Assembly: GCF_000732625.1 (NCBI RefSeq)
Contig: NZ_JPJI01000032.1
Location: 992,001-1,056,000, forward strand
Source of the DNA: Nonlabens ulvanivorans
GTDB lineage: Bacteria; Bacteroidota; Bacteroidia; Flavobacteriales; Flavobacteriaceae
DNA: 64,000 nt
Direction of reading: 5' to 3'
Shown: piece after piece, positions 2,925 through 62,525 of the stretch
How the letters are laid out: each line of letters opens with the position of its first letter
Position numbering within the stretch: position 1 is the first letter of the stretch
Program-made: the position numbers and the translations under genes
The notes under the pieces: model-generated
What the model was told of the DNA's origin: nothing
Seen by the model: only the letters and a program-made list of their open reading frames with translations
Database searches by the model: none

Positions 2925-2956
2925 AGTATATGCCATTGTAAATTTTGTTTGTATTC

Positions 2957-2970
2957 GCTTTCGCGAAAGC
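2957..2970. repeat. GCTTTCGCGAAAGC palindrome, copy 1 (intergenic)
   Basis: Perfect 14-base palindrome that extends outward to a 22-base perfect dyad (2953-2974). It lies between the BspA-like gene and hppA. Confidence 0.95.
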
Positions 2971-2990
2971 GAATCCCTAATAATCTTAGT

Positions 2991-3006
2991 ACTATAACGT
3001 TATAGT
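2991..3006. promoter_or_regulatory. 16-bp palindrome ACTATAACGTTATAGT upstream of hppA
   Basis: A perfect 16-base palindrome about 60 bases before the hppA start. Its right end overlaps TAGTTTTG (3003-3010), which fits the Bacteroidota -7 consensus TAnnTTTG, although I see no -33 TTG at the right distance. It could be an operator for hppA; no regulator is recognisable nearby. Confidence 0.4.
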
Positions 3007-3065
3007 TTTGTTAACATAATTTTATTACATTAGCTAGATTTATAAAACCAAACAAAACAAAACAT

Positions 3066-5531
3066 ATGGAATCATACATGATTTACATGCCATTATTAAT
3101 GGCAGCTCTAGGATTACTTTACATGTTTATTAAGAAATCTTGGGTCTTGAAACAAGATGCAGGAGATGGGAAAATGAAAGAGATTTCAGATCACATCTAT
3201 GAAGGTGCGCTCGCCTTTCTAAAAGCAGAATATAAATTATTAGCATTTTTTGTTATCATAGTAAGTGTTCTACTTGCTATTGTGTCTTTTGTAGTTCCTT
3301 CTACGCACTGGATGATTGTCATCGCTTTTATCTGTGGCGCCATATTTTCGGCATATGCAGGTAATATAGGGATGAAAATTGCAACAAAGACTAATGTAAG
3401 AACAACTCAAGCTGCTCGTACTAGTTTGCCCAAAGCGTTAGGTGTATCCTTTGGTGGTGGATCTGTAATGGGACTTGGTGTTGCAGGACTTGCAGTTCTA
3501 GGTCTTACTGGATTCTTTATCATTTTCTTTCATGTATTTATGAATGGAGAATGGGCAGCAACAGAATTTATGGGAGAAATGAGAACACCAGGTGATTTAA
3601 TGACTATCGTGCTCGAAACACTCGCTGGATTCTCACTAGGTGCTGAGTCTATTGCGCTTTTTGCCCGTGTAGGTGGTGGAATTTATACTAAAGCGGCAGA
3701 CGTAGGTGCCGACCTAGTAGGTAAGGTAGAAGCTGGAATTCCTGAGGATGATCCTCGTAACCCAGCCACTATTGCAGATAACGTAGGTGATAATGTAGGT
3801 GATGTAGCCGGAATGGGTGCTGACCTTTTTGGATCTTATGTAGCAACAGTTCTTGCAGCAATGGTCTTAGGTAACTATGTGATAAGAGATATGCAGGGCG
3901 ATATTGTGAGTGAAGGTTTCGGTGGGATAGGTCCTATCTTATTACCTATGGCTATTGCTGGTGTAGGTATTATAATTTCAGTTATAGGAATGATACTGGT
4001 TAAAATCACCAGTAATGATGCAAAAGAATCTCAAGTAATGAAAGCCTTAAATGTAGGTAACTGGACTTCTATCGTACTAGTTGCCGCAGCATGTTATGGT
4101 CTATGTGTATGGATGTTGCCAGACACGATGCAAATGAATTTTTATGGCGAAGGAGTAATGAATATTTCTTCTATGAACGTATTCTATGCAACTCTAGTAG
4201 GTCTTGTGGTAGGTGCAGTCATCTCATCTGTAACAGAATACTACACAGGATTAGGTAAAAAACCTATTCTTAAAATTGTACAGCAATCTTCTACAGGTGC
4301 AGGAACAAACATCATTGCTGGTCTAGCGACAGGTATGATATCAACATTTCCTTCAGTAATATTATTTGCTGGCGCGATATGGGCTTCTTACGCATTTGCA
4401 GGATTCTATGGTGTGGCTCTTGCAGCTAGTGCTATGATGGCCACTACGGCTATGCAATTAGCCATCGACGCATTTGGTCCTATAGCAGATAATGCTGGTG
4501 GTATTGCAGAGATGAGCGAACAAGAACCTATTGTACGCGAGCGAACTGATATTCTAGATGCGGTAGGTAACACTACAGCGGCTACTGGAAAAGGATTTGC
4601 TATTGCGAGTGCAGCTTTAACATCACTAGCTCTATTTGCAGCATATGTGACTTTTACGGGAATTGATGGAATAAATATTTATAAAGCTCCAGTGCTTGCG
4701 ATGCTATTTGTAGGTGGAATGGTACCAGTTGTATTTAGCGCACTTGCGATGAACGCAGTTGGTAAAGCAGCCATGGAAATGGTAGAAGAAGTACGTCGCC
4801 AGTTCAGAGATATTCCTGGAATCATGGAAGGAACTGGGAAACCAGAGTATGACAAATGTGTAGATATTTCTACACGAGCTTCTCTTAAAGAGATGATGTT
4901 GCCCGGTTTGTTAACCATTGGCTTCCCACTGGTAATTGCATTCGTGCCTATGATATTTGGAATGGATCCGCTTGCGATTGCTGAGATGTTAGGTGGTTAC
5001 ATGGCTGGTGTAACAGTAAGTGGTGTGCTATGGGCTATTTTCCAAAATAATGCTGGTGGAGCATGGGATAACGCAAAGAAATCTTTTGAAGCTGGTGTTG
5101 AAATCAATGGTGAGATGACTTTTAAAGGTTCTGATGCGCATAAAGCTGCCGTAACTGGTGATACAGTAGGTGACCCTTTTAAAGATACTTCTGGTCCTTC
5201 TATGAATATTTTGATTAAACTTACGTGTTTAATTGGTCTAGTTATAGCACCTATCTTGGGTGGTCATGCAACAGATGGACAGGCAAGTGTTATCACGCAA
5301 CAGATTGAGCAAGAAGTCGTGCAGAACAATGAAGAGACGAGCTCACTTTATAAAAACATGGATATTCAAAAATCTGTAGATGCAGAAACAGGTATAGTCA
5401 CTGCAAATGTTACTTATAAATCGTCTGCAAATGGTGCGACGATAACTAAGTCTCATAAGTATGTAGGAACAGAAGCGCAAGTTGAGGCTAAAATACAGGC
5501 TCTCAATCAAGAGGTAATTAACTTTAAATAG
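3066..5531 (+). CDS. hppA: Membrane-bound ion-pumping pyrophosphatase
   Basis: An 821-residue, many-helix inner-membrane pump that hydrolyses pyrophosphate and moves H+ and/or Na+. The diagnostic substrate-binding block is present around residues 212-250 ([20 protein letters not shown], then [10 protein letters not shown]), as is the second acidic block near residues 675-710 ([27 protein letters not shown]). In [10 protein letters not shown] (about 500-509) an Ala occupies the site that is Lys in K+-independent enzymes, so a K+-dependent type is expected; the pumped ion cannot be read with confidence. A C-terminal tail of about 80 residues after the last helix (Lys/Glu-rich, starting near GGHATDG) goes beyond the usual core. 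A strong terminator follows. Confidence 0.95.
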
Positions 5532-5550: not shown

Positions 5551-5586
5551 AAGTCCCATTCTGGCATTGCTAGAATGGGACTTTTT
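5551..5586 (+). terminator. Terminator after hppA
   Basis: Perfect 12-bp stem (AAGTCCCATTCT / AGAATGGGACTT) with a 9-base loop and a T run, 20 bases after the hppA stop. Confidence 0.9.
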
Positions 5587-5617
5587 ATATCAACCATTTA
5601 TTACTTATTTTCACGTC

Positions 5618-6646
5618 ATGGCACTGTTTAAAAGAGATCCTTGGATTCTAGATATTTACCGCACTTATAGCGGTAAAAACCACCTGTATATACGTGGTCG
5701 TGCACTAGAAGATCAACCTCTTAAACATTATGAGCAGCAAACCTTTTACCAGACACTGCGCAACACCTGGCGTACATTTAAGACTGATGAGATACGTAAT
5801 GCATCAGTAGGATTAACGCTGCCTAACGGCACACAGTTTGAGACCAAGGCTGATCATGAAGGTTATTTTTTGTTTGATATTACAGTAGACATAGATCTGG
5901 AAGATCTATCTGATGATGAAGGCTACTTAAGTCTGGCTGTAAAGTTTGATGAGGATAATGCCGCTTTCGCGAAAGCAAAAAAGCAAAAACGACTTGCCAA
6001 GAATAGTTTCAATGGTGAAACATTAATACCGCCGCAAAGTGCTGTTTATGGAGTGATAAGCGATATAGACGACACCATTATGCATACTGGCGTTACTAGT
6101 TTTTTAAAAATACGTGTTGCATTCAATACCTTTTTTAAAAACTATGATCGTAGGTTACCATTAAAAGGCGCTGCAAGTTTATATCAATTGTTACATCGAG
6201 GACCATCCGGTAACGATCAGAACCCGATGTTTTATTTAAGCAATAGTCCGTGGAATTTATATAAGTACCTCGAGAAGTTCTTAGATTTTCATGGTTTTCC
6301 TAAAGGACCTATTCTTCTCAGAGATTTTCCCACACCTTGGGATAGAACGCCTAAATTAAAAAGGCCTCATAAAGTACATGAGTTGCTCAATATTTTAAAG
6401 CACTATCCAGACATGAATTTCATTCTCATAGGCGATAGTGGCGAGCATGATGTTGATTATTATAAAGATGTTGCACAGCAATATCCTGACCGTATCATGG
6501 CCATCTATTTAAGATCTGTCAATCATGATAAGAAAATGGCTCGAGTAAAATCCATTGCAGACTCTTTTACCATATGTCCAATGCTACTCGTTCAAGAATC
6601 TAAAGAGGCCGTAATTCACGCCCGTGAAATGGGATGGATTATCTAA
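5618..6646 (+). CDS. App1-type phosphatase-domain protein (DUF2183)
   Basis: A 342-residue protein without a signal peptide. Around residues 147-155 it has SDIDDTIMHTG, the DxDxT nucleophile motif of the HAD-like App1/DUF2183 family, followed by a conserved YLSNSPWNLY block and FILIGDSGEHDVDYY (third HAD motif). The yeast namesake is a phosphatidate phosphatase; the substrate in bacteria is not established, so a lipid phosphate is an inference from family. The ATG at 5618 (MALFKRDPW) is chosen because longer in-frame starts fall inside the hppA terminator. It contains palindrome copy 2, read as AFAKA. Confidence 0.8.
   Translation: MALFKRDPWILDIYRTYSGKNHLYIRGRALEDQPLKHYEQQTFYQTLRNTWRTFKTDEIRNASVGLTLPNGTQFETKADHEGYFLFDITVDIDLEDLSDDEGYLSLAVKFDEDNAAFAKAKKQKRLAKNSFNGETLIPPQSAVYGVISDIDDTIMHTGVTSFLKIRVAFNTFFKNYDRRLPLKGAASLYQLLHRGPSGNDQNPMFYLSNSPWNLYKYLEKFLDFHGFPKGPILLRDFPTPWDRTPKLKRPHKVHELLNILKHYPDMNFILIGDSGEHDVDYYKDVAQQYPDRIMAIYLRSVNHDKKMARVKSIADSFTICPMLLVQESKEAVIHAREMGWII
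5963..5976. repeat. GCTTTCGCGAAAGC palindrome, copy 2 (in App1-like gene)
   Basis: Perfect 14-mer inside the coding sequence, in frame as Ala-Phe-Ala-Lys-Ala. Confidence 0.95.
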
Positions 6647-7291: not shown

Positions 7292-8083
7292 TTAAGGTTT
7301 CTTCAGGTTGATAGTTTGAACGTGCAAGCGTTTCTGGTGGTAAAGATAAAGTTTTCCACCCTTTAGATAAAGCGATTCTGGCGAGTATTCTTGAGAAAAA
7401 GATGTGGTGATTTCGCTTTCGCGAAAGCGAAATTCTTTATCGAATTGATACCATTTCCAACCGCTATCTGTTTGAAAGCCCAGTTGCTCAAAGTCAAAGG
7501 CCACAGGCAGTTTTAATTCTTCAATTATACGACTGGTTTCACTCGCATATGTATTGTATGTTATGATGCCTTTTTCAGTGATTAGATGACAGAAATTATA
7601 GTCACTTTGCATCTCTATAACGGGTTCTTTTACAGGTGTTGTACTATTCACTAATTTATGATTTGTATAATCATAGAGTTCTAACCTGGATAAGTCTAGA
7701 TTATATAACCACAAACGTCGCTCGCCAGCTAGTCGTACATGTTCTATAAATCGTTGAGGTTTAAGAGTATTAAAGTTGAGTCGTTGTTGCTCATTTAAAC
7801 GATTATCTAAAAAAACTAGAGTTTGTGTATCTCTATAGAATACTAATATCTTTAATGGATTAATGATGTCTACACTGGTAATATCACCTAGTTGTATGTC
7901 AAAAAACTCTAATCGCTTAGATTCTGATTTTTTATATAGAACGTTATCGGTACTGTAATATATACTCTCAAAATCATCCACACCATAAAAGGAATCGCAT
8001 GATAGCGATATGCTATTATCAGTAGAGATTTGTGCAATTAAATTATACGAGCTTATTAAGAAGAGCAGAAGCGTCCATTTCAT
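7292..8083 (-). CDS. Exported hypothetical protein, propeller-like
   Basis: A 263-residue protein that I cannot assign to a named family. It begins with a signal peptide (MKWTLLLFLISSYNLIAQ); the ATG at 8083 is preferred because a longer reading frame would place nine polar residues before the signal. The mature part alternates short beta-strand patterns (ILVFYRDTQTLVFLDN, RRLWLYNLDLSRLELYD, LYLKGGKLYLYHQKRL) that suggest a small beta-propeller in the periplasm or outer membrane. It is encoded between the two-component system genes and the deoxynucleoside kinase, in one operon. It carries palindrome copy 3, read as RFRES. Confidence 0.65.
   Translation of the reverse strand: MKWTLLLFLISSYNLIAQISTDNSISLSCDSFYGVDDFESIYYSTDNVLYKKSESKRLEFFDIQLGDITSVDIINPLKILVFYRDTQTLVFLDNRLNEQQRLNFNTLKPQRFIEHVRLAGERRLWLYNLDLSRLELYDYTNHKLVNSTTPVKEPVIEMQSDYNFCHLITEKGIITYNTYASETSRIIEELKLPVAFDFEQLGFQTDSGWKWYQFDKEFRFRESEITTSFSQEYSPESLYLKGGKLYLYHQKRLHVQTINLKKP
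7415..7428. repeat. GCTTTCGCGAAAGC palindrome, copy 3 (in propeller-like gene)
   Basis: Perfect 14-mer, read on the minus strand as Arg-Phe-Arg-Glu-Ser. Confidence 0.95.
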
Positions 8084-8141
8084 TATTGTAAAATACAAAC
8101 AATTATTCAATTGATGTCTTGATGCTTAAAAAAGTCTGTGT

Positions 8142-10442: not shown

Positions 10443-11315
10443 ATGAAAACTATACAAATTACTCTGATCAGTTTTTTTATTCTCGCTTTCGCGAAAGCGT
10501 ATACCGCACAGGCGCAGCAAGAATTTAAAGCAAAAGCAACCTACATCGCTTTTACAAAGTTTGATCTACCAGAGGATTCAACAATGACTAAAAAAGCCGA
10601 AAGTGATCCAATTGTAAAAGCCATGATGGAACAGTTAAAAAAAGGTAGTAAACAGGAATATACGCTTGAATTTACAAGAACAGAATCATCATATGATAAA
10701 GTAAAACAACTTGCTACACCTAGTAAACCTACTAATGGGATTTCTATTTCCTTTTCTGCCAGTGGTGGAGTAGGTAGCACTATTTATAAAAACATTGAAG
10801 AAAATAGTTATATCAAACAAGGTAACATCATGGGGAAAGATTTTGTCATAATAGATGAATTGCCAACTTATGAATGGAAACTTTTGAGCGAAACAAAAAA
10901 GATAGGTCAGTATACCTGTTTTAAAGCTATTTATGTGCCGATTGAAGAAGAAGTTGAAGAGGAAATAGAGGATGATACCGATGATGAAGTTAATGCTAGC
11001 ATTACTTCTATGGTTGTCGAGGCAGATCCAACTATTACTGCATGGTACACGCCAGACATACCAGTAAGCAATGGTCCAGGAGAATATCATGGCCTGCCTG
11101 GTCTTATTGTCGAGGTACAGCAACAGGAAACCACCATATTATTAAAAGAGATTGTTCTAAATCCTGATGAAAAACTAGATCTAAAAAAGCCGAGAAGTGG
11201 TAAAAAAATCAATCAAGAGGACTTTGACTCATTACAAAAAAAGAAATCTGATGAGATGATGAAAAATAGAGGTTCTGGAAATGGTAGTTTCAGAGTAATA
11301 TCTATTGGAGGATAA
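10443..11315 (+). CDS. GLPGLI family protein 1
   Basis: A 290-residue exported protein with the family-defining HGLPGLIVEV near residue 220, preceded by TAWYTPDIPVSNGPGEY. The signal peptide (MKTIQITLISFFILAFAKAYTAQAQ) itself contains palindrome copy 4, read as AFAKA in the hydrophobic core. An acidic stretch (EEEVEEEIEDDTDDE) at about 165-180 is specific to this paralogue. GLPGLI proteins (TIGR01200) occur in paralogous sets in Bacteroidota and have no established biochemical role; envelope location is inferred. It heads a set with a second GLPGLI gene and an outer-membrane barrel gene, divergent from the two-component system. Confidence 0.88.
   Translation: MKTIQITLISFFILAFAKAYTAQAQQEFKAKATYIAFTKFDLPEDSTMTKKAESDPIVKAMMEQLKKGSKQEYTLEFTRTESSYDKVKQLATPSKPTNGISISFSASGGVGSTIYKNIEENSYIKQGNIMGKDFVIIDELPTYEWKLLSETKKIGQYTCFKAIYVPIEEEVEEEIEDDTDDEVNASITSMVVEADPTITAWYTPDIPVSNGPGEYHGLPGLIVEVQQQETTILLKEIVLNPDEKLDLKKPRSGKKINQEDFDSLQKKKSDEMMKNRGSGNGSFRVISIGG
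10485..10498. repeat. GCTTTCGCGAAAGC palindrome, copy 4 (in GLPGLI signal peptide)
   Basis: Perfect 14-mer coding AFAKA within the hydrophobic stretch of the signal peptide. Confidence 0.95.
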
Positions 11316-17131: not shown

Positions 17132-17932
17132 ATGAGATATCAACTGATTCTATTTTTATTCCTACTTAACTCTTGCCATACAAAGACGACTACTATGCAA
17201 ACCACTATACAGTTAGAACACGAAAAAGTCACCATAGATTTATCACAACCTATAGACATCAGTCTAGCGGTACAAGATAATGCTGGTGTAGGTGCATGGT
17301 ATATCGATCAACCAGATATTACCCATGTTGAGGTCGATGGTTATGTGGGCAAGGTATCATTAGGTGGCTCGACAAATTTTAATAATGTTCATTTTAATCC
17401 TCATAGCCATGGTACACATACCGAGTGTATAGGTCATATTACAGAGGAATTTCATAGTGTCAATGACGCACTAGTAAGAACGTTTTTTAAAGCACAAATC
17501 TTTTCTATAGAGCCAGATAAGCAAGGAGAAGATCAAGTCATCACTCCTCAACATTTTCAAGACTTAAAATCTGGAGTAGAAGCTGTCATCATCCGTACGT
17601 TGCCTAATGGAGAGCAAAAGAACTCAAAGAACTATTCTAATACAAATCCACCTTATATCCTTGAGGAGACTATGATACGCTTTCGCGAAAGCGGAATCAA
17701 GCACATCCTTATAGACCTACCTAGCGTAGATAAAGAGAAAGATGATGGTGCGTTGCTGGCGCACAAAGCATTTTGGGATTTTAATGGTGACCAAAGATTA
17801 GATGCTACAATCACGGAATTAATATATGTACCAGACACTGTAAAGGACGGGTTTTATATGATGGATTTACAAGTAGCTCCATTAGAAAATGATGCTGCGC
17901 CATCTCGTCCGATATTGTATTCTATTCTATGA
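17132..17932 (+). CDS. Cyclase family lipoprotein (kynurenine formamidase-like)
   Basis: A 266-residue putative metal-dependent hydrolase. The N-terminus (LFLFLLNSC) is a lipobox. HSHGTHTECIGH at about 90-101 is the HxGTHxD/E metal-binding motif of the cyclase/arylformamidase family, and later residues (HILIDLPSVD, then HKAFWDF) match the family core. The substrate is unknown; being a lipoprotein argues against a role in cytosolic tryptophan degradation. It overlaps the next gene by 4 bases (ATGA). Palindrome copy 5 sits inside and is read as RFRES. Confidence 0.82.
   Translation: MRYQLILFLFLLNSCHTKTTTMQTTIQLEHEKVTIDLSQPIDISLAVQDNAGVGAWYIDQPDITHVEVDGYVGKVSLGGSTNFNNVHFNPHSHGTHTECIGHITEEFHSVNDALVRTFFKAQIFSIEPDKQGEDQVITPQHFQDLKSGVEAVIIRTLPNGEQKNSKNYSNTNPPYILEETMIRFRESGIKHILIDLPSVDKEKDDGALLAHKAFWDFNGDQRLDATITELIYVPDTVKDGFYMMDLQVAPLENDAAPSRPILYSIL
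17679..17692. repeat. GCTTTCGCGAAAGC palindrome, copy 5 (in cyclase gene)
   Basis: Perfect 14-mer, plus-strand reading RFRES. Confidence 0.95.
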
Positions 17933-21078: not shown

Positions 21079-22179
21079 TTACCCCAATATCCCTTTCTGC
21101 TTTTTATAAAATGCATCAGCTTGTTGTTGCATGAGCTCTCGAGCCATTTTCTTCTTGTAGGCATAAAGTGCTTCTTCTTCAGCAATATCGGCATAGACTC
21201 TGTTGTTGAGTTCTTTGTCAGTTTTAACAAGGATTTCTTGTTGTGCTTTCTGCTGCGTGACCCATGACTTGACGAGGTCTTCGCGCTCTGCAAGTTTAAA
21301 ATCGTACTCGCCACGAGGTGCTAGAACTTTTGCAATAATAGGAGAGGTTTCTACAGCAAGAAATAACAAGAATATAAAGAATGAGGTAAGGAATGGTAAT
21401 TTGTTTAAAGCCTCTATACGTGCCATTAGTCCATCAAAGTTGTCAATGATAGGTTGTGAAGAGGCTAATTGAGTCGCTTCATTTTCCTGTAGCGTTGCTA
21501 TTTGTAATTCTATGGCAGCTATTTTTTCAGCATTCGTAATTTTTAAGGTGTTGAGGTCGGCTAGTGCTGCGTCATGTTTTTCGCGTTTCTCTTTATATAC
21601 AGGACCTTTTCCTAATTTATTTGTGCCAGATGTTCCCTCGGCTTCGGTGATGTAAATGTTGTAAAGCGCATTGACTTCGGCTTCTTTATTTTGAACCTCA
21701 GTTTTTAGTTCTTGTATCGCTTTCGCGAAAGCGTTTTCCTCCACCGCATACAACTGAGCCACTTGTTCCTGATTTTCAAGAGTTAACTGGTTCTTTTCCT
21801 CTAGCAAAACCTGATCAATTTCCTTCTCAAAAATCTTTAATTCAAGTGGTTTAGAAATGACCACAGCGATTATGACAGCTAAGATAATACGTGGCGTAGC
21901 TTGCCAGATTTCATTTATTTTTTTATCACTCTTTTTAAGTGTAGAAACAATGTAGCGGTCTAGATTAAATATTAATAGACCCCAAACAAACCCAAAGGCA
22001 GTAGCGATTAAATAACTATCAAAAACCGTGTACAACGCATAACTAGCCGCAAAAAACGCCATTAGTGCCGTAAAGAACACCGTGGCGCCTATACCGGCAT
22101 ATTTCGTACGCTCACCAGCACTACAATTATCAAGTATATCTGTGTCTGCACCGCTGCAGGTGATGAAGAAGGATTGCAT
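21079..22179 (-). CDS. DUF4407 membrane protein
   Basis: A 366-residue protein. It has four hydrophobic segments (about 28-50, 53-77, 95-113 and 255-275) and a long central coiled coil (about 120-245, Glu/Gln/Lys/Ala-rich). The N-terminal CSGADTDILDNCSAGERTKYAGIGATVFFTALMA, split over about 8-42, is the DUF4407 signature. Function unknown. It converges on the MutS-like gene with a 29-base gap and has palindrome copy 6 in the coiled coil, read as AFAKA. Confidence 0.85.
   Translation of the reverse strand: MQSFFITCSGADTDILDNCSAGERTKYAGIGATVFFTALMAFFAASYALYTVFDSYLIATAFGFVWGLLIFNLDRYIVSTLKKSDKKINEIWQATPRIILAVIIAVVISKPLELKIFEKEIDQVLLEEKNQLTLENQEQVAQLYAVEENAFAKAIQELKTEVQNKEAEVNALYNIYITEAEGTSGTNKLGKGPVYKEKREKHDAALADLNTLKITNAEKIAAIELQIATLQENEATQLASSQPIIDNFDGLMARIEALNKLPFLTSFFIFLLFLAVETSPIIAKVLAPRGEYDFKLAEREDLVKSWVTQQKAQQEILVKTDKELNNRVYADIAEEEALYAYKKKMARELMQQQADAFYKKQKGILG
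21719..21732. repeat. GCTTTCGCGAAAGC palindrome, copy 6 (in DUF4407 gene)
   Basis: Perfect 14-mer, minus-strand reading AFAKA inside the coiled-coil region. Confidence 0.95.
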
Positions 22180-26556: not shown

Positions 26557-26570
26557 GCTTTCGCGAAAGC
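26557..26570. repeat. GCTTTCGCGAAAGC palindrome, copy 7 (intergenic)
   Basis: Perfect 14-mer, a 16-base dyad with flanking C/G, between the stop of the fibre-like gene and the following terminator. Confidence 0.95.
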
Positions 26571-30101: not shown

Positions 30102-30136
30102 TTTGACCATGTTTAAAATAGAACGATTTACCTTTG
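30102..30136 (+). promoter_or_regulatory. Promoter of the HAD phosphatase gene
   Basis: TTTG (30102-30105), 23 bases, TACCTTTG (30129-30136). The spacing is at the upper limit of the usual range. Its position excludes the upstream ATG at 30103 and supports the start at 30154. Confidence 0.6.
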
Positions 30137-30153: not shown

Positions 30154-30957
30154 ATGATACAACTTCTTGCCTCAGATATAGACGGAACCTTACTAGATAG
30201 CGATCGATTTCTATCAGCACGTACTTTACAGGCTTTTAATAAGGCAAATCAATTGCCAGTCATTCTTATTTCTGCTCGCATGCCGCAAGCTATGTACTAT
30301 TTACAAGATGCTTTAAAAAGAAGGGAAATGCCTATTGTTTGTTACAATGGTGCACTCGTCCTTGATCAACAAAAACAGCTTTATAGTACCACAATACCTT
30401 ATATCGATATTGAGAACATAGCTCGTATCGCTATGGAACATGACCTTCATTGTAGTTTGTATAGAAATGATGAGTGGTTTGTACCTCAAATGGATTACTG
30501 GGCAGATCGCGAGGTAAATAATACTCGTGTCACTCCTCAAGTACAAAATATAGAAACGACTTTAGCATACTTTAAAGAAACCCAGCAATTGGGCGGTGCT
30601 CATAAAATAATGTTGATGGGCGATAGTGATGCTATGGATTCCGCTTTCGCGAAAGCGGGAAATTTACCATCACAGTTACATCTTTACCGATCTAAGGATA
30701 CCTACACAGAAATCTCACCACTTGAAATTTCTAAAAAATCTGCATTGGAATTACTAATTAAAGAATGTTTCCCGGAAGTAAAAGTAGAGAATGTTGCTGC
30801 CTTTGGCGATAATTACAATGATGTAGAAATGATTGCTGGAGTAGGGCACGGAGTTGCTGTAGACAATGCAAGAGATGAAGTAAAAGCTGTTGCAAACTAT
30901 CATACCGGCCATCATAAAAAAGATGGTGTGGCACAATGGATTGAGAAATTTATATAA
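30154..30957 (+). CDS. Cof-type HAD-family phosphatase
   Basis: A 267-residue cytosolic phosphatase of the Cof/YidA type. Motif I is SDIDGTLLD at about residues 6-14, motif II ILISARMP near 40, motif III lysine in the KKSALELL segment, and motif IV VAAFGDNYNDVEMI near 218-231. A C2 cap lies between motifs II and III. Likely substrates are sugar phosphates or flavin/pyridoxal phosphates; specificity cannot be predicted. Palindrome copy 8 lies in the cap and is read as AFAKA. Confidence 0.9.
   Translation: MIQLLASDIDGTLLDSDRFLSARTLQAFNKANQLPVILISARMPQAMYYLQDALKRREMPIVCYNGALVLDQQKQLYSTTIPYIDIENIARIAMEHDLHCSLYRNDEWFVPQMDYWADREVNNTRVTPQVQNIETTLAYFKETQQLGGAHKIMLMGDSDAMDSAFAKAGNLPSQLHLYRSKDTYTEISPLEISKKSALELLIKECFPEVKVENVAAFGDNYNDVEMIAGVGHGVAVDNARDEVKAVANYHTGHHKKDGVAQWIEKFI
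30643..30656. repeat. GCTTTCGCGAAAGC palindrome, copy 8 (in HAD gene)
   Basis: Perfect 14-mer flanked by CC and GG, read as AFAKA. Confidence 0.95.
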
Positions 30958-34390: not shown

Positions 34391-35286
34391 AAGGTTTTTA
34401 ATTTTTTAAAAGGTATCAATATACAACCCAATAATGTAGGGAATAGTGTGTTTGTCAACCATATTAACGTGGTCGCAATAACGATAGGTGATTGTAAAAT
34501 ACCACCGTTAAAAATCATATCAGCTACGGCCCATTTTACAGGTATATCAAATATTTGAAACATGGGAATTATTGAAACTGCGAGATAATTTAGTGCGATA
34601 TTATCTAACCATGTCAGTAATGCAATGTCAGATTTAATGAGTTGCAACATGATTAACCAATTACTTGCAAAAAACAAATATCTTAATAACGACAAGGCGA
34701 TGGTTTGTTTCCATAATTTAAATGTCACATCCTTGAGGTGCCAGTGATCACTCAAATATTGATAGAAAGCATAAATAACAGCTAAACAGACTATGCCTGT
34801 TATGGCTAAAATTAATGTACCATAAAATTCTTTTTTAATATAAAAAAGCAATCCTATAAGCCCCAAAAATACCGTAACTATCATCTGACATAGATTACCT
34901 AGAAACACTCTACTCAAAATAGATTTCCGATCATCTCGCTCATAAAACAACGCTTTATAAGCAAATTCGCCTGCTCTTAATGGTGTGATAAAACTTGCCG
35001 CTTGAGCAGTGAGACTTTGTATTATGCTTTCGCGAAAGCGTATTTCTTCAATATCCTTAACTAATACTTGCCATTTTTTACTTTCCACTAGCCAGCTTGT
35101 CAAGCTTAATAATAACATCAATCCAATAGAGTAAAATGGAATTTCTTTTAAATAAAAAAGTATGCTATCCATTCTTACTGGTCTATCAGTCCACTGAAAA
35201 TAGAGCAGTGTTATACAGCCAATGAACACCAGAATCTTAATAGATGGAGCGAGGAATTGCTTAGCTTTGTGCCAGGTGCTAGTCAT
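34387..35286 (-). CDS. Flippase-like integral membrane protein (lysylphosphatidylglycerol synthase TM type)
   Basis: A 299-residue protein with about eight helices. SLTAQAASFITPLRAGEFAYKALFY is the conserved loop (QAASFITPLRAGE) of the LPG-synthase-transmembrane/flippase-like family. It lacks the aminoacyl transferase domain. It may move or bind a lipid-linked sugar made by the coupled glycosyltransferase; this is inference from gene order. The ATG at 35286 (MTSTWHKAK) is chosen; longer starts would run into ruvC. Palindrome copy 9 is read as RFRES just before the conserved loop. Confidence 0.75.
   Translation of the reverse strand: MTSTWHKAKQFLAPSIKILVFIGCITLLYFQWTDRPVRMDSILFYLKEIPFYSIGLMLLLSLTSWLVESKKWQVLVKDIEEIRFRESIIQSLTAQAASFITPLRAGEFAYKALFYERDDRKSILSRVFLGNLCQMIVTVFLGLIGLLFYIKKEFYGTLILAITGIVCLAVIYAFYQYLSDHWHLKDVTFKLWKQTIALSLLRYLFFASNWLIMLQLIKSDIALLTWLDNIALNYLAVSIIPMFQIFDIPVKWAVADMIFNGGILQSPIVIATTLIWLTNTLFPTLLGCILIPFKKLKTL
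35026..35039. repeat. GCTTTCGCGAAAGC palindrome, copy 9 (in flippase-like gene)
   Basis: Perfect 14-mer, minus-strand reading RFRES. Confidence 0.95.
35262..35269 (+). promoter_or_regulatory. Candidate -7 box of ruvC
   Basis: TAGCTTTG matches TAnnTTTG and lies inside the 5' end of the divergent flippase-like gene, 37 bases before the ruvC TTG. No good -33 is seen. Confidence 0.4.
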
Positions 35287-35305: not shown

Positions 35306-35860
35306 TTGGCAACAGAAAAAATCATTCTCGGTATAGATCCTGGAACCGCATTAATGGGTTTTGGAGTTATAAAAGTAGTAGGCAATAAGATGAGTTTCCT
35401 GCAAATGAACGAGTTGGATTTACGCAAATACACAGATCATTATGTGAAATTGCGTAAGATTTTTGAACGTACTATTGAACTGATCGACACTCATCATCCT
35501 GATGAGATTGCGCTAGAAGCACCGTTTTTTGGTAAGAATGTGCAATCCATGCTCAAATTAGGTCGTGCACAAGGTGTTGCGATGGCTGCAGGATTATCTA
35601 GAGATATACCTGTAACAGAGTATGCACCACGTAAGATCAAACAATCTATTACTGGTAAAGGAACTGCTAGTAAAGAACAGGTTGCAAAAATGTTGCAAAG
35701 TCTGCTAGGCTTTAAAGAAATGCCTAAAAATCTTGATATGACTGATGGGCTCGCAGCGGCAGTATGCCATTTTTACAATAGCGGTAGGATAGAAGTAGGT
35801 AAAAGCTATACTGGTTGGGCTGCTTTTGTAAAGCAAAACGAGAAGCGCATTAAGAAATAA
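35306..35860 (+). CDS. ruvC: Holliday junction endonuclease RuvC
   Basis: A 184-residue endonuclease that resolves Holliday junctions with RuvAB. The catalytic acidic residues are visible: D11 in GIDPGTALMGFG, E71 in ALEAPFFGKN, and D144 and D147 in DMTDGLAAAVCH. The TTG at 35306, reading (M)ATEKIILGIDPG, gives the normal family length; longer in-frame starts would enter the divergent gene's coding sequence. Only 19 bases separate the two divergent start codons. Confidence 0.93.
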   Translation: MATEKIILGIDPGTALMGFGVIKVVGNKMSFLQMNELDLRKYTDHYVKLRKIFERTIELIDTHHPDEIALEAPFFGKNVQSMLKLGRAQGVAMAAGLSRDIPVTEYAPRKIKQSITGKGTASKEQVAKMLQSLLGFKEMPKNLDMTDGLAAAVCHFYNSGRIEVGKSYTGWAAFVKQNEKRIKK

Positions 35861-38349: not shown

Positions 38350-39087
38350 ATGATTAGCATTATTATACCTGTTCTTAATGAAGAGCATTCTATTTATCAG
38401 TTATTGACGCATTTGGTTGAGAAATCAAGTAATATCAATACAATAGAAATCATTGTCATAGATGGTCATAGTATAGACAATACAGATGGTCAGGTTTCCG
38501 CTTTCGCGAAAGCGTATCCATCACTATCACTACAGTTTCATACAGCCTCAAAAGGTCGTGGTTCACAAATGCATGCAGGATCGCAAATCGCAAATGGTGA
38601 AATCCTTTATTTTCTTCATGCAGATTCTTTTCCGCCTCAAGATTATGATAAGTACATAATTCAAGCCGTTTCTCAGGGAAATCCAGCAGGCTGTTTCCGT
38701 ATGCGATTTATGAGTTGGAATTGGTGGTTAATCATTATAGGGTGGTTTACTAGATTCTCATGGCGTGCCAGTCGTGGTGGTGATCAATCACAGTATATTA
38801 CTAAAGAGTTATATGAAAAGATAGGTGGCTATAATACAGAGATTCCTATCTATGAAGACTATGATTTAATCCATAGATTATACGATCACGGAACCTATTA
38901 TGTGATTCCTAAATGGTTAAAAACCAGTGCTAGACGTTATGAAGAAATAGGCGTTTATAAACTACAATGGTTTTATATCACTATTTATTGGAAGAAGCGT
39001 AATGGCGCTACTATAGATGAGATCTATGAGTATTATTTAAAATGGTGCCAGACCAGCCAGTTACAAAAGTCTAGTAGTCAGAACTAG
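38350..39087 (+). CDS. TIGR04283-type family 2 glycosyltransferase
   Basis: A 245-residue GT2 enzyme. ISIIIPVLNEEHSI, EIIVIDGHSIDNT, ASKGRGSQMHAGSQIANGEIL (read in two parts) and FLHADSFPP show the nucleotide-sugar site, and RGGDQSQYI and PIYEDYDLIHRL the acceptor region. This pattern is the TIGR04283 arsenosugar-associated family. Palindrome copy 10 encodes AFAKA between the first strand pair. The gene ends 2 bases from the convergent HD-hydrolase gene, leaving no room for a separate terminator. Confidence 0.87.
   Translation: MISIIIPVLNEEHSIYQLLTHLVEKSSNINTIEIIVIDGHSIDNTDGQVSAFAKAYPSLSLQFHTASKGRGSQMHAGSQIANGEILYFLHADSFPPQDYDKYIIQAVSQGNPAGCFRMRFMSWNWWLIIIGWFTRFSWRASRGGDQSQYITKELYEKIGGYNTEIPIYEDYDLIHRLYDHGTYYVIPKWLKTSARRYEEIGVYKLQWFYITIYWKKRNGATIDEIYEYYLKWCQTSQLQKSSSQN
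38500..38513. repeat. GCTTTCGCGAAAGC palindrome, copy 10 (in TIGR04283 gene)
   Basis: Perfect 14-mer read as AFAKA. Confidence 0.95.
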
Positions 39088-42271: not shown

Positions 42272-43155
42272 AAATAATTATCGCAGGTGGCACGGGATTT
42301 CTAGGTATTTCACTGTCGCAATATTTTGAGAATAGAGGAGATGAGGTGATTACGCTTTCGCGAAAGTGTGATCCTCAAACCACTTACTGGAATGGTAAAG
42401 ATCTAGGAGAGTGGACTGCCCATTTAGAAAATGCAGATGTACTCATCAACCTCGCAGGTAAGTCAGTAGATTGCAGATATACTAATGCTAATAAAAAAGT
42501 AATATTAAGTTCGCGCATCGATAGCACTAGAGTTCTGAATTTAGCGATGACCAATGCTATCAACAAGCCAAAGGTGTTTTTAAACGCAAGTACCGCAACC
42601 ATCTACATCCATTCTGAAACGCAAATGAATACTGAAGAAAATGGTATTATAGGTGACGACTTCTCTATGGGAATAGGCAAGGCATGGGAAAAGGAATTCT
42701 TTTCAACCACTATTGAAGGTGTGCGCAAAGTAGCTTTGAGAACTTCAATCATGTTAGGAAATGATGGTGGTGCATTGCCTAAAATGAAAGCTATTACTAG
42801 AGTAGGAATGGGCGGTAAAAATGGTCGTGGTAATCAGTTTGTAAGCTGGATTCATATCAATGATTTTTGTAGGTCTATTGAATTCTTAATTCAATCTGAT
42901 TTGGAAGGTGTAGTAAACATCACGGCACCTAAGCCAGAAACAAATGCAGATTTTATGAGGCAATTGCGTAAATCTATGAATATACCATTCGGTATCTCGC
43001 AACCTATTTGGTTACTAGAATTAGGGACATCCATTATAGGAACAGAAACAGAGCTGCTTTTAAAAAGTCGTAATGTGTATCCGCAACGCTTGATCGATGC
43101 TGGGTTTCAGTTTAACTATGATAATATAGGTCTTTGTTTAAAGGATCTTAGTTAA
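42268..43155 (+). CDS. TIGR01777 family NAD(P)-dependent epimerase-like oxidoreductase
   Basis: A 295-residue short-chain-type protein with N-terminal MKIIIAGGTGFLGISLSQYF (GGxGFLG Rossmann motif), DVLINLAGKSVDCRY, SRIDSTRVL, and FVSWIHINDFCRSIEFL, the TIGR01777/YfcH/SDR39U1 pattern. The C-terminal DUF1731-like domain is present. The substrate is unknown. The start at 42268 overlaps the previous stop by 4 bases. It contains the one-mismatch palindrome, read as LSRK. It overlaps the convergent M1 peptidase gene by 8 bases. Confidence 0.87.
   Translation: MKIIIAGGTGFLGISLSQYFENRGDEVITLSRKCDPQTTYWNGKDLGEWTAHLENADVLINLAGKSVDCRYTNANKKVILSSRIDSTRVLNLAMTNAINKPKVFLNASTATIYIHSETQMNTEENGIIGDDFSMGIGKAWEKEFFSTTIEGVRKVALRTSIMLGNDGGALPKMKAITRVGMGGKNGRGNQFVSWIHINDFCRSIEFLIQSDLEGVVNITAPKPETNADFMRQLRKSMNIPFGISQPIWLLELGTSIIGTETELLLKSRNVYPQRLIDAGFQFNYDNIGLCLKDLS
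42354..42367. repeat. GCTTTCGCGAAAGT, palindrome copy 11 with one mismatch (in TIGR01777 gene)
   Basis: Thirteen of 14 bases match; the last base is T in place of C. Read as LSRK with the preceding Thr. Confidence 0.85.
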
Positions 43156-44801: not shown

Positions 44802-45815
44802 TTAATTTCTAATCTGTAAATAATTTTTTGCTACAACCTTTTCACCTTCTTTCCCTTGTGTTGTAAAGCGTTTTGAGAAGTCGCGATGTCTACTATCTTC
44901 TGCATGGTGTTTCCATAAAAAACCACCTGCAAACCATTCTTCTTTCCAGACGGCATCATATAAACCTTGTAAAAGAATTGCTTGTGCTTTTTGATTTTCT
45001 AATCGGTCTTCACCAGCATTTTTCCATGGTTCAAGGCCAGCATAGTCTGCACTTATATATCCATACTCAGCAAAAAGAATTTTTTTATTCAGCTTTCGCG
45101 AAAGCGTGCTTAACTCATCCACCCATTTTTTCCATGACTCTTGAATGGTAAGTGGATGAGGAGTTTTTTCTTTACTTACGGGAAAATAAGCATCAACGCC
45201 TATGTAGTCTAGTTGCTCCCAAAAGTGAACGTTTTTATAGCTATCCCAATTTCCTGCATAGGTCAGTTTTCCTTTGTAGATACTACGAATCTTATGAATC
45301 AGTTGATCCCAATATTGGGGTCTTAGTTCAACAAAAGAATCTAATTCGGTACCTATACAAAACATTGCGACATTTTCACTAGCTGCTATATTTACAAATT
45401 TCATGATATAATCTGTGTAGCTGTCTTCTAGGACTTTCCAATCATCTTCTGTTTTTAAATTAATTTCACCGGTGTATGATCCACGACCTATCCATATTTG
45501 TGGTTTAAGTAATACGTCTAGATTTTGATCATTCATATGTTTTATGGTGGCTTTTACACCAGTAGGTTTCTCGCCCCACCAACCACGTTCTTCTTCATAG
45601 TTCACTTGTGGCTCTTCTAAACTGCGCATCCATGCATATGGTACAATAACCGCATAATTTGCATTATAATTTTTAATAGGTGTAATGCCAGTAGAGTCTA
45701 TAGGATTGCGAGTTGCTACTAACGTAATCCCATTAATTTTTTCTTCTTTCTGTAAATCTTGACCATTGCAAGAAGTAATGGTGACTAATAATAAAAGATA
45801 AAAGAGTGATCTCAT
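44802..45815 (-). CDS. GH113-like glycoside hydrolase lipoprotein
   Basis: A 337-residue lipoprotein (lipobox LVTITSC) with a TIM-barrel layout. VLLKPQIWIG, FCIGTELDSF (likely acid/base Glu), LDYIGVDAYFPVS and ILFAEYGYIS (likely nucleophile Glu) recall GH113 beta-mannanase-like enzymes, and WEQLDYIGVDAY fits well. The true substrate is uncertain. It sits between a DUF547 gene and the M1 peptidase gene in a leftward operon. Palindrome copy 12 is read as LSRK. Confidence 0.72.
   Translation of the reverse strand: MRSLFYLLLLVTITSCNGQDLQKEEKINGITLVATRNPIDSTGITPIKNYNANYAVIVPYAWMRSLEEPQVNYEEERGWWGEKPTGVKATIKHMNDQNLDVLLKPQIWIGRGSYTGEINLKTEDDWKVLEDSYTDYIMKFVNIAASENVAMFCIGTELDSFVELRPQYWDQLIHKIRSIYKGKLTYAGNWDSYKNVHFWEQLDYIGVDAYFPVSKEKTPHPLTIQESWKKWVDELSTLSRKLNKKILFAEYGYISADYAGLEPWKNAGEDRLENQKAQAILLQGLYDAVWKEEWFAGGFLWKHHAEDSRHRDFSKRFTTQGKEGEKVVAKNYLQIRN
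45092..45105. repeat. GCTTTCGCGAAAGC palindrome, copy 12 (in GH113-like gene)
   Basis: Perfect 14-mer, minus-strand reading LSRK. Confidence 0.95.
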
Positions 45816-49801: not shown

Positions 49802-49815
49802 GCTTTCGCGAAAGC
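49802..49815. repeat. GCTTTCGCGAAAGC palindrome, copy 13 (intergenic)
   Basis: Perfect 14-mer extending to a 22-base perfect dyad (49798-49819), in the 41-base gap between two convergent genes. Confidence 0.95.
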
Positions 49816-55137: not shown

Positions 55138-55151
55138 GCTTTCGCGAAAGC
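55138..55151. repeat. GCTTTCGCGAAAGC palindrome, copy 14 (intergenic)
   Basis: Perfect 14-mer between rpsO and pnp; four further flanking pairs are broken by one mismatch. Confidence 0.95.
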
Positions 55152-56585: not shown

Positions 56586-57653
56586 CTATAATGTATTGAT
56601 GTTGTTTAAGTCTTCAAAGGCAGCTTTTAAGCGTGCTTTAAAACTTTCTTCACCTACGCGTAACCATTTGCGTGGATCATAGTATTTTTTATTTGGAGCA
56701 TCTGCTCCAGTCGGATTTCCTATTTGTGATAGTAAAAAATCATTGTTTGTATCCATATAACCTTTTACACCTGTAGCAAAAGCCCATTGTAAATCGGTAT
56801 CGATGTTCATTTTTACAACACCATAACCTATTGCTTCTCTAATTTCTTCTAGTGTTGAACCTGATCCGCCATGAAATACAAAGTCGATATGATTGTGCTC
56901 AACGCCATACTTTTGGGTGATATATTCTTGTGAATTCTTTAAAATCTTAGGAGTTAATTTTACATTCCCAGGTTTATATACACCGTGTACGTTACCAAAT
57001 GCTGCTGCGATGGTAAAACGGTCACTTACTTTTTTTAGCTCTTCATAAGCATATGCTACCTCTTCTGGTTGAGTGTATAATTTTGATTCATCAACATCAC
57101 TATTGTCTACACCATCTTCCTCACCACCGGTAATACCTAACTCTATTTCTAGAGTCATGTCCATTTTAGACATGCGTTCTAGATATCTTTTACATATTTC
57201 GATATTCTCTTCAAGTGGTTCTTCACTAAGGTCAATCATGTGAGAAGAGTATAGTGATTTACCGCTTTCGCGAAAGCGAGTTTCACTAGCATCTAGTAAT
57301 CCATCGATCCAAGGAAGTAATTTTTTTGCACAGTGGTCTGTGTGAAGTATTACAGTAGCTCCATATGCTTCTGCTAGTCTGTGAACATGTTCTGCTCCAG
57401 CGATTCCTCCAAGAATAGCAGCACGATGACCATCATTGTTAAGTCCTTTACCAGCGTTGAATACACTTCCTCCATTTGAGTACTGTATAATCACTGGTGA
57501 GTTCAACTCTGCAGCGGTTTCCATCACAGCGTTAACAGTATTTGATCCTACTACGTTAACGGCTGGTAGGGCATAACCATTTGCCTTTGCATGGTTGAAT
57601 ATTTCTTGAACTTGGTTACCTGTGGCAACACCTGGTTTGATATTATGACTCAT
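56586..57653 (-). CDS. fbaA: Class II fructose-bisphosphate aldolase
   Basis: A 355-residue zinc aldolase of glycolysis/gluconeogenesis, of class IIA (E. coli FbaA) type. Metal and active-site motifs are VILHTDHCAKK near 100-110, MTLEIELGITGGEEDGVDNS near 170-190, FGNVHGVYKPGNVKL near 223 and VFHGGSGST near 263. It keeps the family length; palindrome copy 15 replaces residues near 130 (RFRES) without changing length. A -7 box TACTTTTG (57683-57676, minus strand) lies 23 bases before the ATG. Confidence 0.96.
   Translation of the reverse strand: MSHNIKPGVATGNQVQEIFNHAKANGYALPAVNVVGSNTVNAVMETAAELNSPVIIQYSNGGSVFNAGKGLNNDGHRAAILGGIAGAEHVHRLAEAYGATVILHTDHCAKKLLPWIDGLLDASETRFRESGKSLYSSHMIDLSEEPLEENIEICKRYLERMSKMDMTLEIELGITGGEEDGVDNSDVDESKLYTQPEEVAYAYEELKKVSDRFTIAAAFGNVHGVYKPGNVKLTPKILKNSQEYITQKYGVEHNHIDFVFHGGSGSTLEEIREAIGYGVVKMNIDTDLQWAFATGVKGYMDTNNDFLLSQIGNPTGADAPNKKYYDPRKWLRVGEESFKARLKAAFEDLNNINTL
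57264..57277. repeat. GCTTTCGCGAAAGC palindrome, copy 15 (in fbaA)
   Basis: Perfect 14-mer, minus-strand reading RFRES. Confidence 0.95.
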
Positions 57654-61020: not shown

Positions 61021-61720
61021 AGTTTAAGAAAATCCCTCTAGATTGCATACTAGAAATGTTTCCAGTATACGGACTGTTAGGATCCACGTCTCTTACTAAC
61101 TCGTCATTAATAGCAAACACTCCTCTTATTGAAGGAGTGAATTTAAAATAATACAAGTAAAAGTCAATCCCGAAACCTAATTCATAATTAAACACATTAG
61201 TCACCTGACGGAACTGATTTGCACTATTATCATTAGGATTCTCTTCATTACTGGATAGATTACGTGACCACGAGGCGCCACCTACAATAAAAGGTTTCCA
61301 GTTATTTAATCTTTTAGTTGAAAACTTGACTAGTAAAGGGACGTTGATGTAAGTAGAGGTTACTTCTCTTTCAAAATCACCAGGCATTGTAAATGAAGGG
61401 TCTTCAAAGTTCAAAGTTCTAGTAACAAAACTTATTCCTGGTTCTAATCTTAGGTTTATATAATTGTTGATTTTTAAATCACCAATTAGCCCTACATTAA
61501 AACCCATCGATGTTTCTACAAAGATATCATCTGTAACTTCATTATAATCAAATTTATAATCATAAGAATTAAGCCCTAAAAAATATCCCCAGGTATATCT
61601 TTTCTCATCAATCTGACCTTGTCCACCAGTAGCATCATTAGATATTTTTTCCTTTACAGATTGCGCACTAGCGACTTGAAAGCCTATCATCAGGCTAATA
61701 AGGATAAGAATTGACCTCAT
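61007..61720 (-). CDS. porT: PorT/SprT-type outer-membrane beta-barrel protein
   Basis: A 237-residue eight-strand-type barrel with signal peptide MRSILILISLMIGFQVASAQ. The segments YTWGYFLGLNSYDYKFDY, INNYINLRLEPGISFVTRTL, YINVPLLVKFST and YYFKFTPSIRGVFAINDELV match PorT family proteins, and the next gene upstream is ubiE, the order I recall for SprT in Flavobacterium. PorT/SprT is needed for type IX secretion. The ATG at 61720 is used because longer frames lie inside ubiE. Confidence 0.78.
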   Translation of the reverse strand: MRSILILISLMIGFQVASAQSVKEKISNDATGGQGQIDEKRYTWGYFLGLNSYDYKFDYNEVTDDIFVETSMGFNVGLIGDLKINNYINLRLEPGISFVTRTLNFEDPSFTMPGDFEREVTSTYINVPLLVKFSTKRLNNWKPFIVGGASWSRNLSSNEENPNDNSANQFRQVTNVFNYELGFGIDFYLYYFKFTPSIRGVFAINDELVRDVDPNSPYTGNISSMQSRGIFLNFTFQ

Positions 61721-61724
61721 ATGA

Positions 61725-62456
61725 TTATTTAATTGCTTTGTAAATAGTTGATGCACCATGGAATTGTAAAAAATGTTCCACATTATTAAACCCAACTTTC
61801 TTTAAAATATTGTTGAAACGTTCACCATAAGGAAAAGTCGAGGCGCTTTTTTGAAGATATCCATAGGCTATCTTATCCTTGGAAAATAATTTACCTATAG
61901 TGGGAACGACTAATTTAGAAAATACATAGTAACCTTGCTTAAATGGGAATTTAGTAGGGACACTAGTCTCAAGTATCACAAGTATACCTTGAGGTTTAAG
62001 AACACGTCTTATTTCTGATAACCCTTTTTCTAAATCCTCAAAGTTGCGTACACCGTAGGAAACAGTGACAGCATCAATAGAATCATTTTCAAAAGGTAAA
62101 TCTTCAGAATCTCCTAAAACCATCTCGATACGATTGTCTAGATCTTCCTTTTTAACTTTTATCTTGCCAACTTCAAGCATACCACTAGATATATCTAACC
62201 CTATAAGTTTAGAAGCATTCGTCTTTTGCGCCATTTGTATTACTAGATCACCAGTCCCAGTCGCGATATCCATGATCGTATCTGGGTTAGTCGCAGCAAT
62301 CATGTCTACCACGTTAGCACGCCATTTTTGGTCTAGACCTAATGATATCATACGATTAAGGCCATCATATTCTCCACTTATAGTGTCAAACATTTTAGTC
62401 ACCTGTTCCTTTTTACTGCTATCTTCTTCGTTATATGGTTTAACCTCTTGAGCCAC
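61725..62456 (-). CDS. ubiE: Demethylmenaquinone methyltransferase
   Basis: A 243-residue SAM-dependent methyltransferase (UbiE/MenG) for the last step of menaquinone synthesis. SAM motif I MDIATGTGDLVIQMA, motif II VSYGVRNFEDLEKGLSEI, and YDGLNRMISLGLDQKWR are diagnostic. It ends 4 bases before porT, so both are likely cotranscribed. A -7 box TATCTTTG (62482-62475, minus strand) is 19 bases before the ATG; the -33 is weak. Confidence 0.95.
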   Translation of the reverse strand: MAQEVKPYNEEDSSKKEQVTKMFDTISGEYDGLNRMISLGLDQKWRANVVDMIAATNPDTIMDIATGTGDLVIQMAQKTNASKLIGLDISSGMLEVGKIKVKKEDLDNRIEMVLGDSEDLPFENDSIDAVTVSYGVRNFEDLEKGLSEIRRVLKPQGILVILETSVPTKFPFKQGYYVFSKLVVPTIGKLFSKDKIAYGYLQKSASTFPYGERFNNILKKVGFNNVEHFLQFHGASTIYKAIK

Positions 62457-62511
62457 GATTCTAGTAATTTGTTACAAAGATAAGGTAGAGCAGTGAGGTT
62501 TGAGTAATTAC

Positions 62512-62525
62512 GCTTTCGCGAAAGC
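62512..62525. repeat. GCTTTCGCGAAAGC palindrome, copy 16 (intergenic)
   Basis: Perfect 14-mer between the divergent ubiE and trkA promoters. Confidence 0.95.

What the first reader, a model, noticed from the sequence alone, without database searches (positions are those of the whole stretch)
2953..62525. Highly iterated palindrome GCTTTCGCGAAAGC throughout the window
The perfect 14-mer occurs 15 times, plus one copy with a single mismatch, at 2957, 5963, 7415, 10485, 17679, 21719, 26557, 30643, 35026, 38500, 42354 (mismatch), 45092, 49802, 55138, 57264 and 62512. By a simple base-composition estimate at roughly 35% GC the expectation is far below one copy. It is neither a mobile element nor tied to any gene family. 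Comparable phenomena are HIP1 of cyanobacteria, DNA uptake sequences, and sites for nucleoid, segregation or methylation systems. I know of no described function for this sequence in Flavobacteriaceae.
Basis: seen in the sequence. Interest (0 to 1): 0.78.

Follow-up and report, generated by a model that had tools for sequence, protein, structure and literature searches.

The report
Genome-wide evenly spaced 14-letter palindrome
Two groups of sea bacteria (and at least one other genome) carry the same 14-letter mirror-image DNA word hundreds of times, kept by evolution and, in this genome, spaced like mileposts along the chromosome, most likely so that a still unknown protein can recognise the cell's own DNA.

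Summary
The genome holds 566, the reversed control none. All 23 held congeners (probably Nonlabens) and all 18 held Dokdonia are dense (288-905), as is one unnamed third genus; the rest of a 397-genome family sample have 0-19. Codon shuffles give 0.2 against 58 in ORFs. Copies are centres of ~50-bp symmetric sites whose halves do not co-vary, suggesting a protein dimer, not a hairpin. In 464 kb of this genome copies avoid each other (CV 0.40, no gap under 1 kb); evenness is weaker elsewhere. Coding copies are conserved in 25 of 28 within-genus comparisons, random 14-mers in ~3%. Four phage-gene-bearing contigs carry 2-3 copies each; two Nonlabens phages carry none. The profile best matches DNA uptake sequences, with chromosome architecture the main rival.

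The parts
2957..2970 (.). perfect copy, intergenic (between ORFs 621-2924 and 3066-5531); no counterpart in the matching stretch of G394
5963..5976 (.). perfect copy inside ORF 5567-6646 (+), reads AFAKA; perfect in G010, 1 mismatch in G242, 2 in G394
7415..7428 (.). perfect copy inside ORF 7292-8110 (-)
10485..10498 (.). perfect copy near the start of ORF 10443-11315 (+), reads AFAKA; perfect at the same place in G394, G242 and Dokdonia G206
17679..17692 (.). perfect copy inside putative cyclase ORF 17132-17932 (+), reads RFRES; perfect in three congeners
21719..21732 (.). perfect copy inside ORF 21079-22179 (-)
26557..26570 (.). perfect copy, intergenic, convergent genes; perfect in the same intergenic place of G242, 1 mismatch in G010
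30643..30656 (.). perfect copy inside ORF 30103-30957 (+); perfect in G010
35026..35039 (.). perfect copy inside ORF 34387-35433 (-)
38500..38513 (.). perfect copy inside ORF 38350-39087 (+)
42354..42367 (.). single-mismatch copy (last base T) inside ORF 42199-43155 (+); it lies in the 6.6-kb gap between perfect copies
45092..45105 (.). perfect copy inside ORF 44802-45815 (-)
49802..49815 (.). perfect copy, intergenic, convergent genes
55138..55151 (.). perfect copy, intergenic, on the 5' side of the PNPase gene (52808-55039, -)
57264..57277 (.). perfect copy inside ORF 56586-57653 (-)
62512..62525 (.). perfect copy, intergenic, divergent genes

Best explanation
The palindrome is the invariant centre of a ~50-bp symmetric recognition site for a sequence-specific, probably dimeric, DNA-binding protein. 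It works like a DNA uptake sequence: a self label spread over the backbone chromosome so that nearly every DNA fragment of a few kilobases carries one. A new copy far from existing copies makes its fragment recognisable and is favoured by drive or selection; a copy near another adds little and is lost, which yields spacing near the length of the exchanged fragments (about 5 kb here). SHOWN: abundance, conservation within the genus, change by substitution rather than insertion, symmetric but independent flanks, avoidance of close neighbours in this genome, presence in some phage contigs, absence from two Nonlabens phages. NOT SHOWN: the protein, or competence in these genera.
For: Spacing: 94 perfect copies in 464 kb, gap 4926 +/- 1971, CV 0.40 against ~0.98 for random placement (lowest of 2000 simulations 0.70), 0 gaps <1000 against 17 expected. 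The 15 one-mismatch copies sit in the gaps (median 2472 from a perfect copy, random 1264); with them CV 0.39. A toy neighbour-saturation model with 5-kb fragments gives mean gap ~4.3 kb, CV 0.16-0.24; without drive CV 1.08. Conservation 9 of 10, 8 of 9, 8 of 9 coding copies in three congeners at 66-72% nt identity, random 14-mers 2.4-3.4%, in slightly more divergent surroundings (0.689 vs 0.721, 0.649 vs 0.658, 0.657 vs 0.677, 9-10 sites each), as reported for Neisseria DUS (PMC2397512, abstract and passages). H. influenzae USS are relatively even and under-represented in new segments and rRNA genes (PMC7811141, passages). Phage contigs with portal and capsid (L121), prohead protease (L087), primase (L148) or integrase (L070) genes carry 2-3 perfect copies 0.8-6.5 kb apart; Nonlabens phages P12024S and P12024L carry none. 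Pasteurellaceae prophages accumulate USS while phages over 150 kb, likely lytic, are USS-poor (PMC6776037, passages). Riemerella columbina, same family, prefers its own DNA in transformation (PMC7965970, passages).
Against: The uptake sequences known to me (DUS, USS) are not palindromic (recalled). The T2SSE family (type IV pilus / type II secretion ATPase) is over its cut-off in only 2 of 8 dense and 2 of 14 non-dense genomes tested, so a standard pilus is not the common machine. ComEC, DprA and other competence genes were not tested, and no competence report for these genera was seen. Intergenic copies turn over faster: 3 perfect and 1 one-mismatch of 7 comparisons, and two more own intergenic copies have no counterpart among the G394 sites (read by eye). 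Evenness is weaker elsewhere: CV 0.73 (G206), 0.76 (G190), 0.92 (G578). Even spacing and conservation also fit an architectural protein. The P12024 phages are two related isolates of ~36 kb, and 'virulent' rests on no annotated integrase; the hosts of the motif-bearing contigs are unknown.
Confidence: 0.45

Rival explanations
1. Chromosome-architecture site: a dimeric nucleoid or segregation protein binds the palindrome every ~5 kb over the whole chromosome and folds, anchors or insulates it.
For: Perfect dyad with independent halves; ~50-bp footprint; even spacing and purifying selection; dense in 23 of 23 and 18 of 18 held genomes of two genera.
Against: No ori/ter gradient in 79 sampled sites of the one-contig G190 genome (counts per eighth 6-13, largest gap 261 kb, P 0.09). 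Many times denser than Noc, SlmA or matS sites (recalled). Does not by itself predict phage contigs with copies beside host phages without any.
Confidence: 0.27
2. HIP-type site created or kept through DNA methylation and mismatch repair, as proposed for HIP1 of cyanobacteria (Elhai 2015, PMC4390886).
For: Iterated GC-rich palindrome in an AT-rich genome, mostly in genes; sites conserved; that model too predicts a preferred spacing (passages).
Against: C5 methyltransferase family PF00145 has no match in dense G242 and G190. A 14-bp core with ~18 further graded positions per side is far longer than a methyltransferase site. Of 15 one-mismatch copies 13 differ at inner positions 5, 9 or 10, whereas HIP1 deviations favour the first and last base (abstract). 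Adenine and N4 methyltransferases were not tested.
Confidence: 0.1
3. Self marker that protects DNA from the cell's own nucleases (Chi-like, or against a defence system) rather than promoting uptake.
For: Maximum gap 11.6 kb in 464 kb; copies in some phage contigs.
Against: Chi is orientation-dependent (recalled), this site is symmetric; phages P12024S and P12024L, recorded from a Persicivirga (now Nonlabens) host, carry none.
Confidence: 0.08
4. Hairpin, RNA or mobile element (terminator, REP, MITE).
For: The core alone is a perfect inverted repeat.
Against: Flanks pair across the dyad about as often as independence predicts; 58 of 94 copies are in ORFs, in all three frames, and the 36 intergenic ones occur in all gene orientations; within the genus 0 of 28 compared coding places are gapped, so not insertion; no conserved body beyond the graded flank.
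Confidence: 0.03

Closest known systems
DNA uptake sequences: DUS (Neisseriaceae), USS (Pasteurellaceae)
   Same: hundreds of copies or more, core plus weaker flank, high conservation in slightly permissive surroundings, relatively even spacing, presence in some phages
   Different: palindromic; in Bacteroidota; no shared type IV pilus; uptake untested; ~1 per 4-6 kb instead of ~1 per kb (USS spacing from PMC7811141)
HIP1 and alternate HIPs of cyanobacteria
   Same: highly iterated palindrome, mostly in genes, function unproven
   Different: 14 bp plus flanks instead of 8; copies avoid each other here; C5 methyltransferase not required; different phylum
parS / Noc-binding site (recalled: TGTTTCACGTGAAACA, ATTTCCCGGGAAAT)
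   Same: 14-16-bp palindrome with TTTC/GAAA arms, read by a dimer
   Different: half-sites one base nearer the dyad; hundreds of copies over the chromosome; parS itself present separately, two copies in each of 22 genomes
matS and SlmA sites (recalled)
   Same: chromosomal palindromes read by dimers
   Different: those are tens of copies with regional bias; here no gradient was found in a sample

Membership tests
DNA uptake sequence | strong genome-wide over-representation of one exact word | tested here: met
   (566 vs 0)
DNA uptake sequence | relatively even spacing | tested here: met
   own genome CV 0.40; much weaker in G206, G190, G578
DNA uptake sequence | more conserved than its surroundings | tested here: met
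   25 of 28 within-genus coding comparisons perfect; surroundings slightly below average; intergenic 3 perfect of 7
DNA uptake sequence | rare in recently acquired DNA | tested here: inconclusive
   G578 20-kb stretches, picked after seeing the density: four of GC 0.363-0.401 hold 7 copies, four of GC 0.410-0.427 hold 23; gap-GC correlation -0.29 in own genome; no island was dated
DNA uptake sequence | present in temperate, scarce in lytic phages | tested here: inconclusive
   hosts of the contigs unknown, only two related phages without integrase
DNA uptake sequence | type IV pilus uptake machine | tested here: not met
   T2SSE over cut-off in 2 of 8 dense genomes
DNA uptake sequence | promotes DNA uptake | not testable with these tools
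   needs transformation assays
HIP | highly iterated palindrome | tested here: met
HIP | cognate methyltransferase in every rich genome | tested here: inconclusive
   C5 family absent in 2 of 8 dense genomes; other classes not tested
parS / ParB | ParB reads the site | tested here: not met
   one ParB match and two canonical parS in each dense genome tested
Noc/SlmA/MatP-type site | dedicated dimeric binder | not tested
   binder unknown
Noc/SlmA/MatP-type site | regional bias on the chromosome | tested here: not met
   79-site sample of G190 shows no gradient
REP/MITE | intergenic inserted element with conserved body | tested here: not met
   58 of 94 in ORFs, no gapped losses within the genus

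The most novel reading that the evidence does not exclude
A palindromic, pilus-independent self-recognition system of Bacteroidota: a dimeric receptor reads a ~50-bp symmetric label, drives it to hundreds of spaced copies, has done so in at least three non-sister genera with the identical core, and lets phages and genomic islands be traced to their donors by the copies they carry.
Probability: 0.35. Interest if true: 0.88.

Novelty: new variant of a known kind. Interest (0 to 1): 0.76.

Why it matters
If it is an uptake label, it would be, as far as I know, the first such code outside the Neisseriaceae and Pasteurellaceae, in a major marine phylum whose uptake machinery is poorly known, and the palindrome would point to a new kind of receptor. 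If architectural, it would be the densest strict-sequence chromosome site I know of.

Tried and rejected
ParB/Noc-like reader: rejected, parS is canonical and unchanged. C5 methylation: not required. Type IV pilus link: none. Hairpin/RNA: no co-variation. Ori/ter gradient: none in a 79-site sample. Other iterated palindromes in other genera: 20 stretches from 19 genomes were asked for; three genomes gave under 5 kb and were dropped, 16 were scanned; G242, a dense congener, rang; of the other 15 none showed a comparable motif, at a sensitivity of words seen about four times in 20 kb. TCCGCGAGGA in G287 and G044 is part of a longer repeat, GTTCCACGTGGAAC in G006 is parS, GTAAAACGTTTTAC in G144 (2 copies) was not followed. 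Single origin of the dense state: a 16-genome ParB tree puts the four dense rows in separate places (3 changes, at least 2 forced by well-supported branches, 0% of 200 bootstrap trees with one; 154 of 500 label shuffles were as low), and G206 and G190 are not in the cut list of genomes with PNPase closest to the window's. Single-gene evidence only. The first molecular-drive script stopped with an error after printing its other parts and was rewritten; it is a toy, and any neighbour-saturating benefit gives the same result. One search (880 papers with two of four terms, 10 listed) was swamped by general transformation papers, so I make no claim that competence of these genera is unpublished.
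Full report
OBSERVATION. GCTTTCGCGAAAGC occurs at the 16 places given, 15 perfect and one with a single mismatch, with no two-mismatch copy; dinucleotide shuffles give 0.11. The genome holds 566 perfect copies, one per 5.7 kb, and none of the reversed control. In 464 kb of contig C32 including the window there are 94; the next commonest 14-bp palindrome has two. With proteins and codon pool preserved, ORFs should hold 0.2 copies; they hold 58. Of 32 AFAKA peptides, 30 are spelled by the motif: the DNA word makes the peptide, not the reverse.

WHO HAS IT. In a family sample of 397 genomes, 80 have at least one copy: six are dense (408-857), 74 have 1-19, 317 none. All 23 held genomes of the own genus are dense (288-857), as are all 18 of G206's genus (369-905). 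G206 contig C1 has the length of Dokdonia sinensis SH27 Scaffold1, and a 26-letter extended pattern in the named genome collection hit only Dokdonia and Nonlabens (10 stretches; records close to the window may be left out, and the pattern would miss G190-like flanks), so the own genus is probably Nonlabens. The third dense genome, G190 (46% GC), is unnamed. Of 196 genomes drawn from the order only the own genome is dense. In several low-copy genomes the copies are clustered. Twenty such stretches from 12 genomes were fetched; the four that were read for genes (L020, L021, L028, L029) carry a heavy-metal island (copper-type, judged by eye, no family search) and in all four a pair of copies 933 bp apart in a 405-aa outer-membrane-efflux-like gene. 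Several of the 20 stretches also hold copies with one or two mismatches. I read this as DNA acquired from dense donors and decaying; that is inference.

ANATOMY. From 197 sites in five own-genus genomes (G000, G394, G242, G010, G578), reading outwards from the dyad: CGAAAGC (fixed by the search), then G 90%, A 72% at position 10, A 65% at 11, T 55% at 12, A 61% at 17, A 53-59% at 19-20, C 41% at 22, and near-continuous depletion of G (2-12%, background 18%) from position 11 to 25. The depletion holds in intergenic sites and on both sides of coding sites, so it is not a codon effect. Pairing of opposite flank positions is close to independence in three genomes: the two halves are read separately, which argues for a dimer on duplex DNA and against a selected hairpin. 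The 15 one-mismatch copies in own DNA change positions 5, 9, 10 (13 of them), 12 or 14.

SPACING. Own gaps: mean 4926, SD 1971, CV 0.40 (random 0.98, lowest of 2000 simulations 0.70), smallest 1107, 17 gaps under 1 kb expected and none seen. One-mismatch copies lie in the gaps. G206 has CV 0.73 and one gap under 1 kb (8.4 expected), G190 0.76 and none (5.2 expected, but zero also occurs in simulations), over 200 kb each. G578 has 0.92 over 94 copies read off the list, with 5 gaps under 1 kb against about 18 by an exponential of the same mean (the 18 is my arithmetic). So close pairs are rarer than chance in the four, weakly so in G190, but overall evenness is clear only in this genome. 36 of 94 own copies are intergenic although ORFs cover 93.6% of the sequence.

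EVOLUTION. Coding copies are perfect in 9 of 10 (G394), 8 of 9 (G242), 8 of 9 (G010) orthologue comparisons; these share sites and are not independent. Random 14-mers are identical in 2.4-3.4%. For unchanged amino acids outside motifs the codon GCG stays GCG in 27 of 127, 14 of 85, 18 of 58; inside motifs in 4 of 5, 5 of 5, 5 of 5; TTC inside motifs 4 of 5, 4 of 6, 5 of 6. Within the genus no compared place is gapped (0 of 28). Against Dokdonia 1 of 7, against G190 0 of 4 places are shared, one gapped in each. Intergenic places: 3 perfect and 1 one-mismatch of 7; by eye, own intergenic copies at C32 957691 and 994957 also lack a G394 counterpart, while own one-mismatch copies at 954550 and 968134 fall where G394 has perfect ones. 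Coding places are thus stable within the genus, intergenic ones less so, and places are largely turned over between genera. A ParB tree separates the dense genera (single gene).

MOBILE DNA. Four contigs with phage genes and GC 0.36-0.38 carry 2-3 perfect copies. Nonlabens phage P12024S (35,700 bases) and P12024L (35,000 of 35,652) have none up to two mismatches, where 6-7 each would be expected at host density (the 6-7 is my arithmetic); neither shows an annotated integrase. Cellulophaga phage Ingeline_1, a relative of L087 with an integrase and a host of another genus, has none.

MECHANISM. A site-by-site mutational process cannot make copies avoid each other; a benefit that saturates once a stretch has a copy can (toy model). 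That is the expected behaviour of uptake sequences, and papers on USS and DUS report relatively even spacing, high conservation in permissive core regions, scarcity in new DNA, and accumulation in prophages but not in very large, likely lytic phages (abstract or passages only: PMC7811141, PMC2397512, PMC6776037). I therefore judge an uptake-like self label most likely (0.45), an architectural protein next (0.27). Against uptake: palindromy, and no shared type IV pilus. Against ParB. Against required C5 methylation.

LITERATURE. No paper held the 14-mer string, or 'highly iterated palindrome' with Bacteroidetes; searches gave no description in Flavobacteriaceae among the rows listed (titles and abstract starts seen). 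The R. columbina paper listed over-represented words of 7-10 bp in three other species (passages).

Noticed in passing
G000:C32:561802 and 563694, and 21 other genomes: Canonical parS (GTTYCACGTGRAAC) occurs exactly twice, about 1.9-2.1 kb apart, in all 22 Flavobacteriaceae genomes tested; a very constant origin signature.
   Followed up: partly
L020, L021, L028, L029: Heavy-metal (copper-type) islands in non-dense genera carry a pair of copies 933 bp apart in the same gene, with decaying copies nearby; the motif may mark their donor.
   Followed up: partly
L207 (G287), L222 (G044): GAAAATCCGCGAGGATTTTC-like repeats 4-5 times in 20 kb in two genera, part of a longer dispersed repeat.
   Followed up: partly
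L209 (G144) positions 2 and 7992: Palindrome GTAAAACGTTTTAC twice in 20 kb; not counted genome-wide.
   Followed up: no
L087, L078: Two motif-bearing phage contigs share a ~720-aa protein family (phrog_21862); the L087 member has relatives in Cellulophaga Ingeline phages.
   Followed up: partly
window flanks of the copies: The outward strand of each flank is depleted of G for about 15 bases, independent of coding direction; no explanation.
   Followed up: partly
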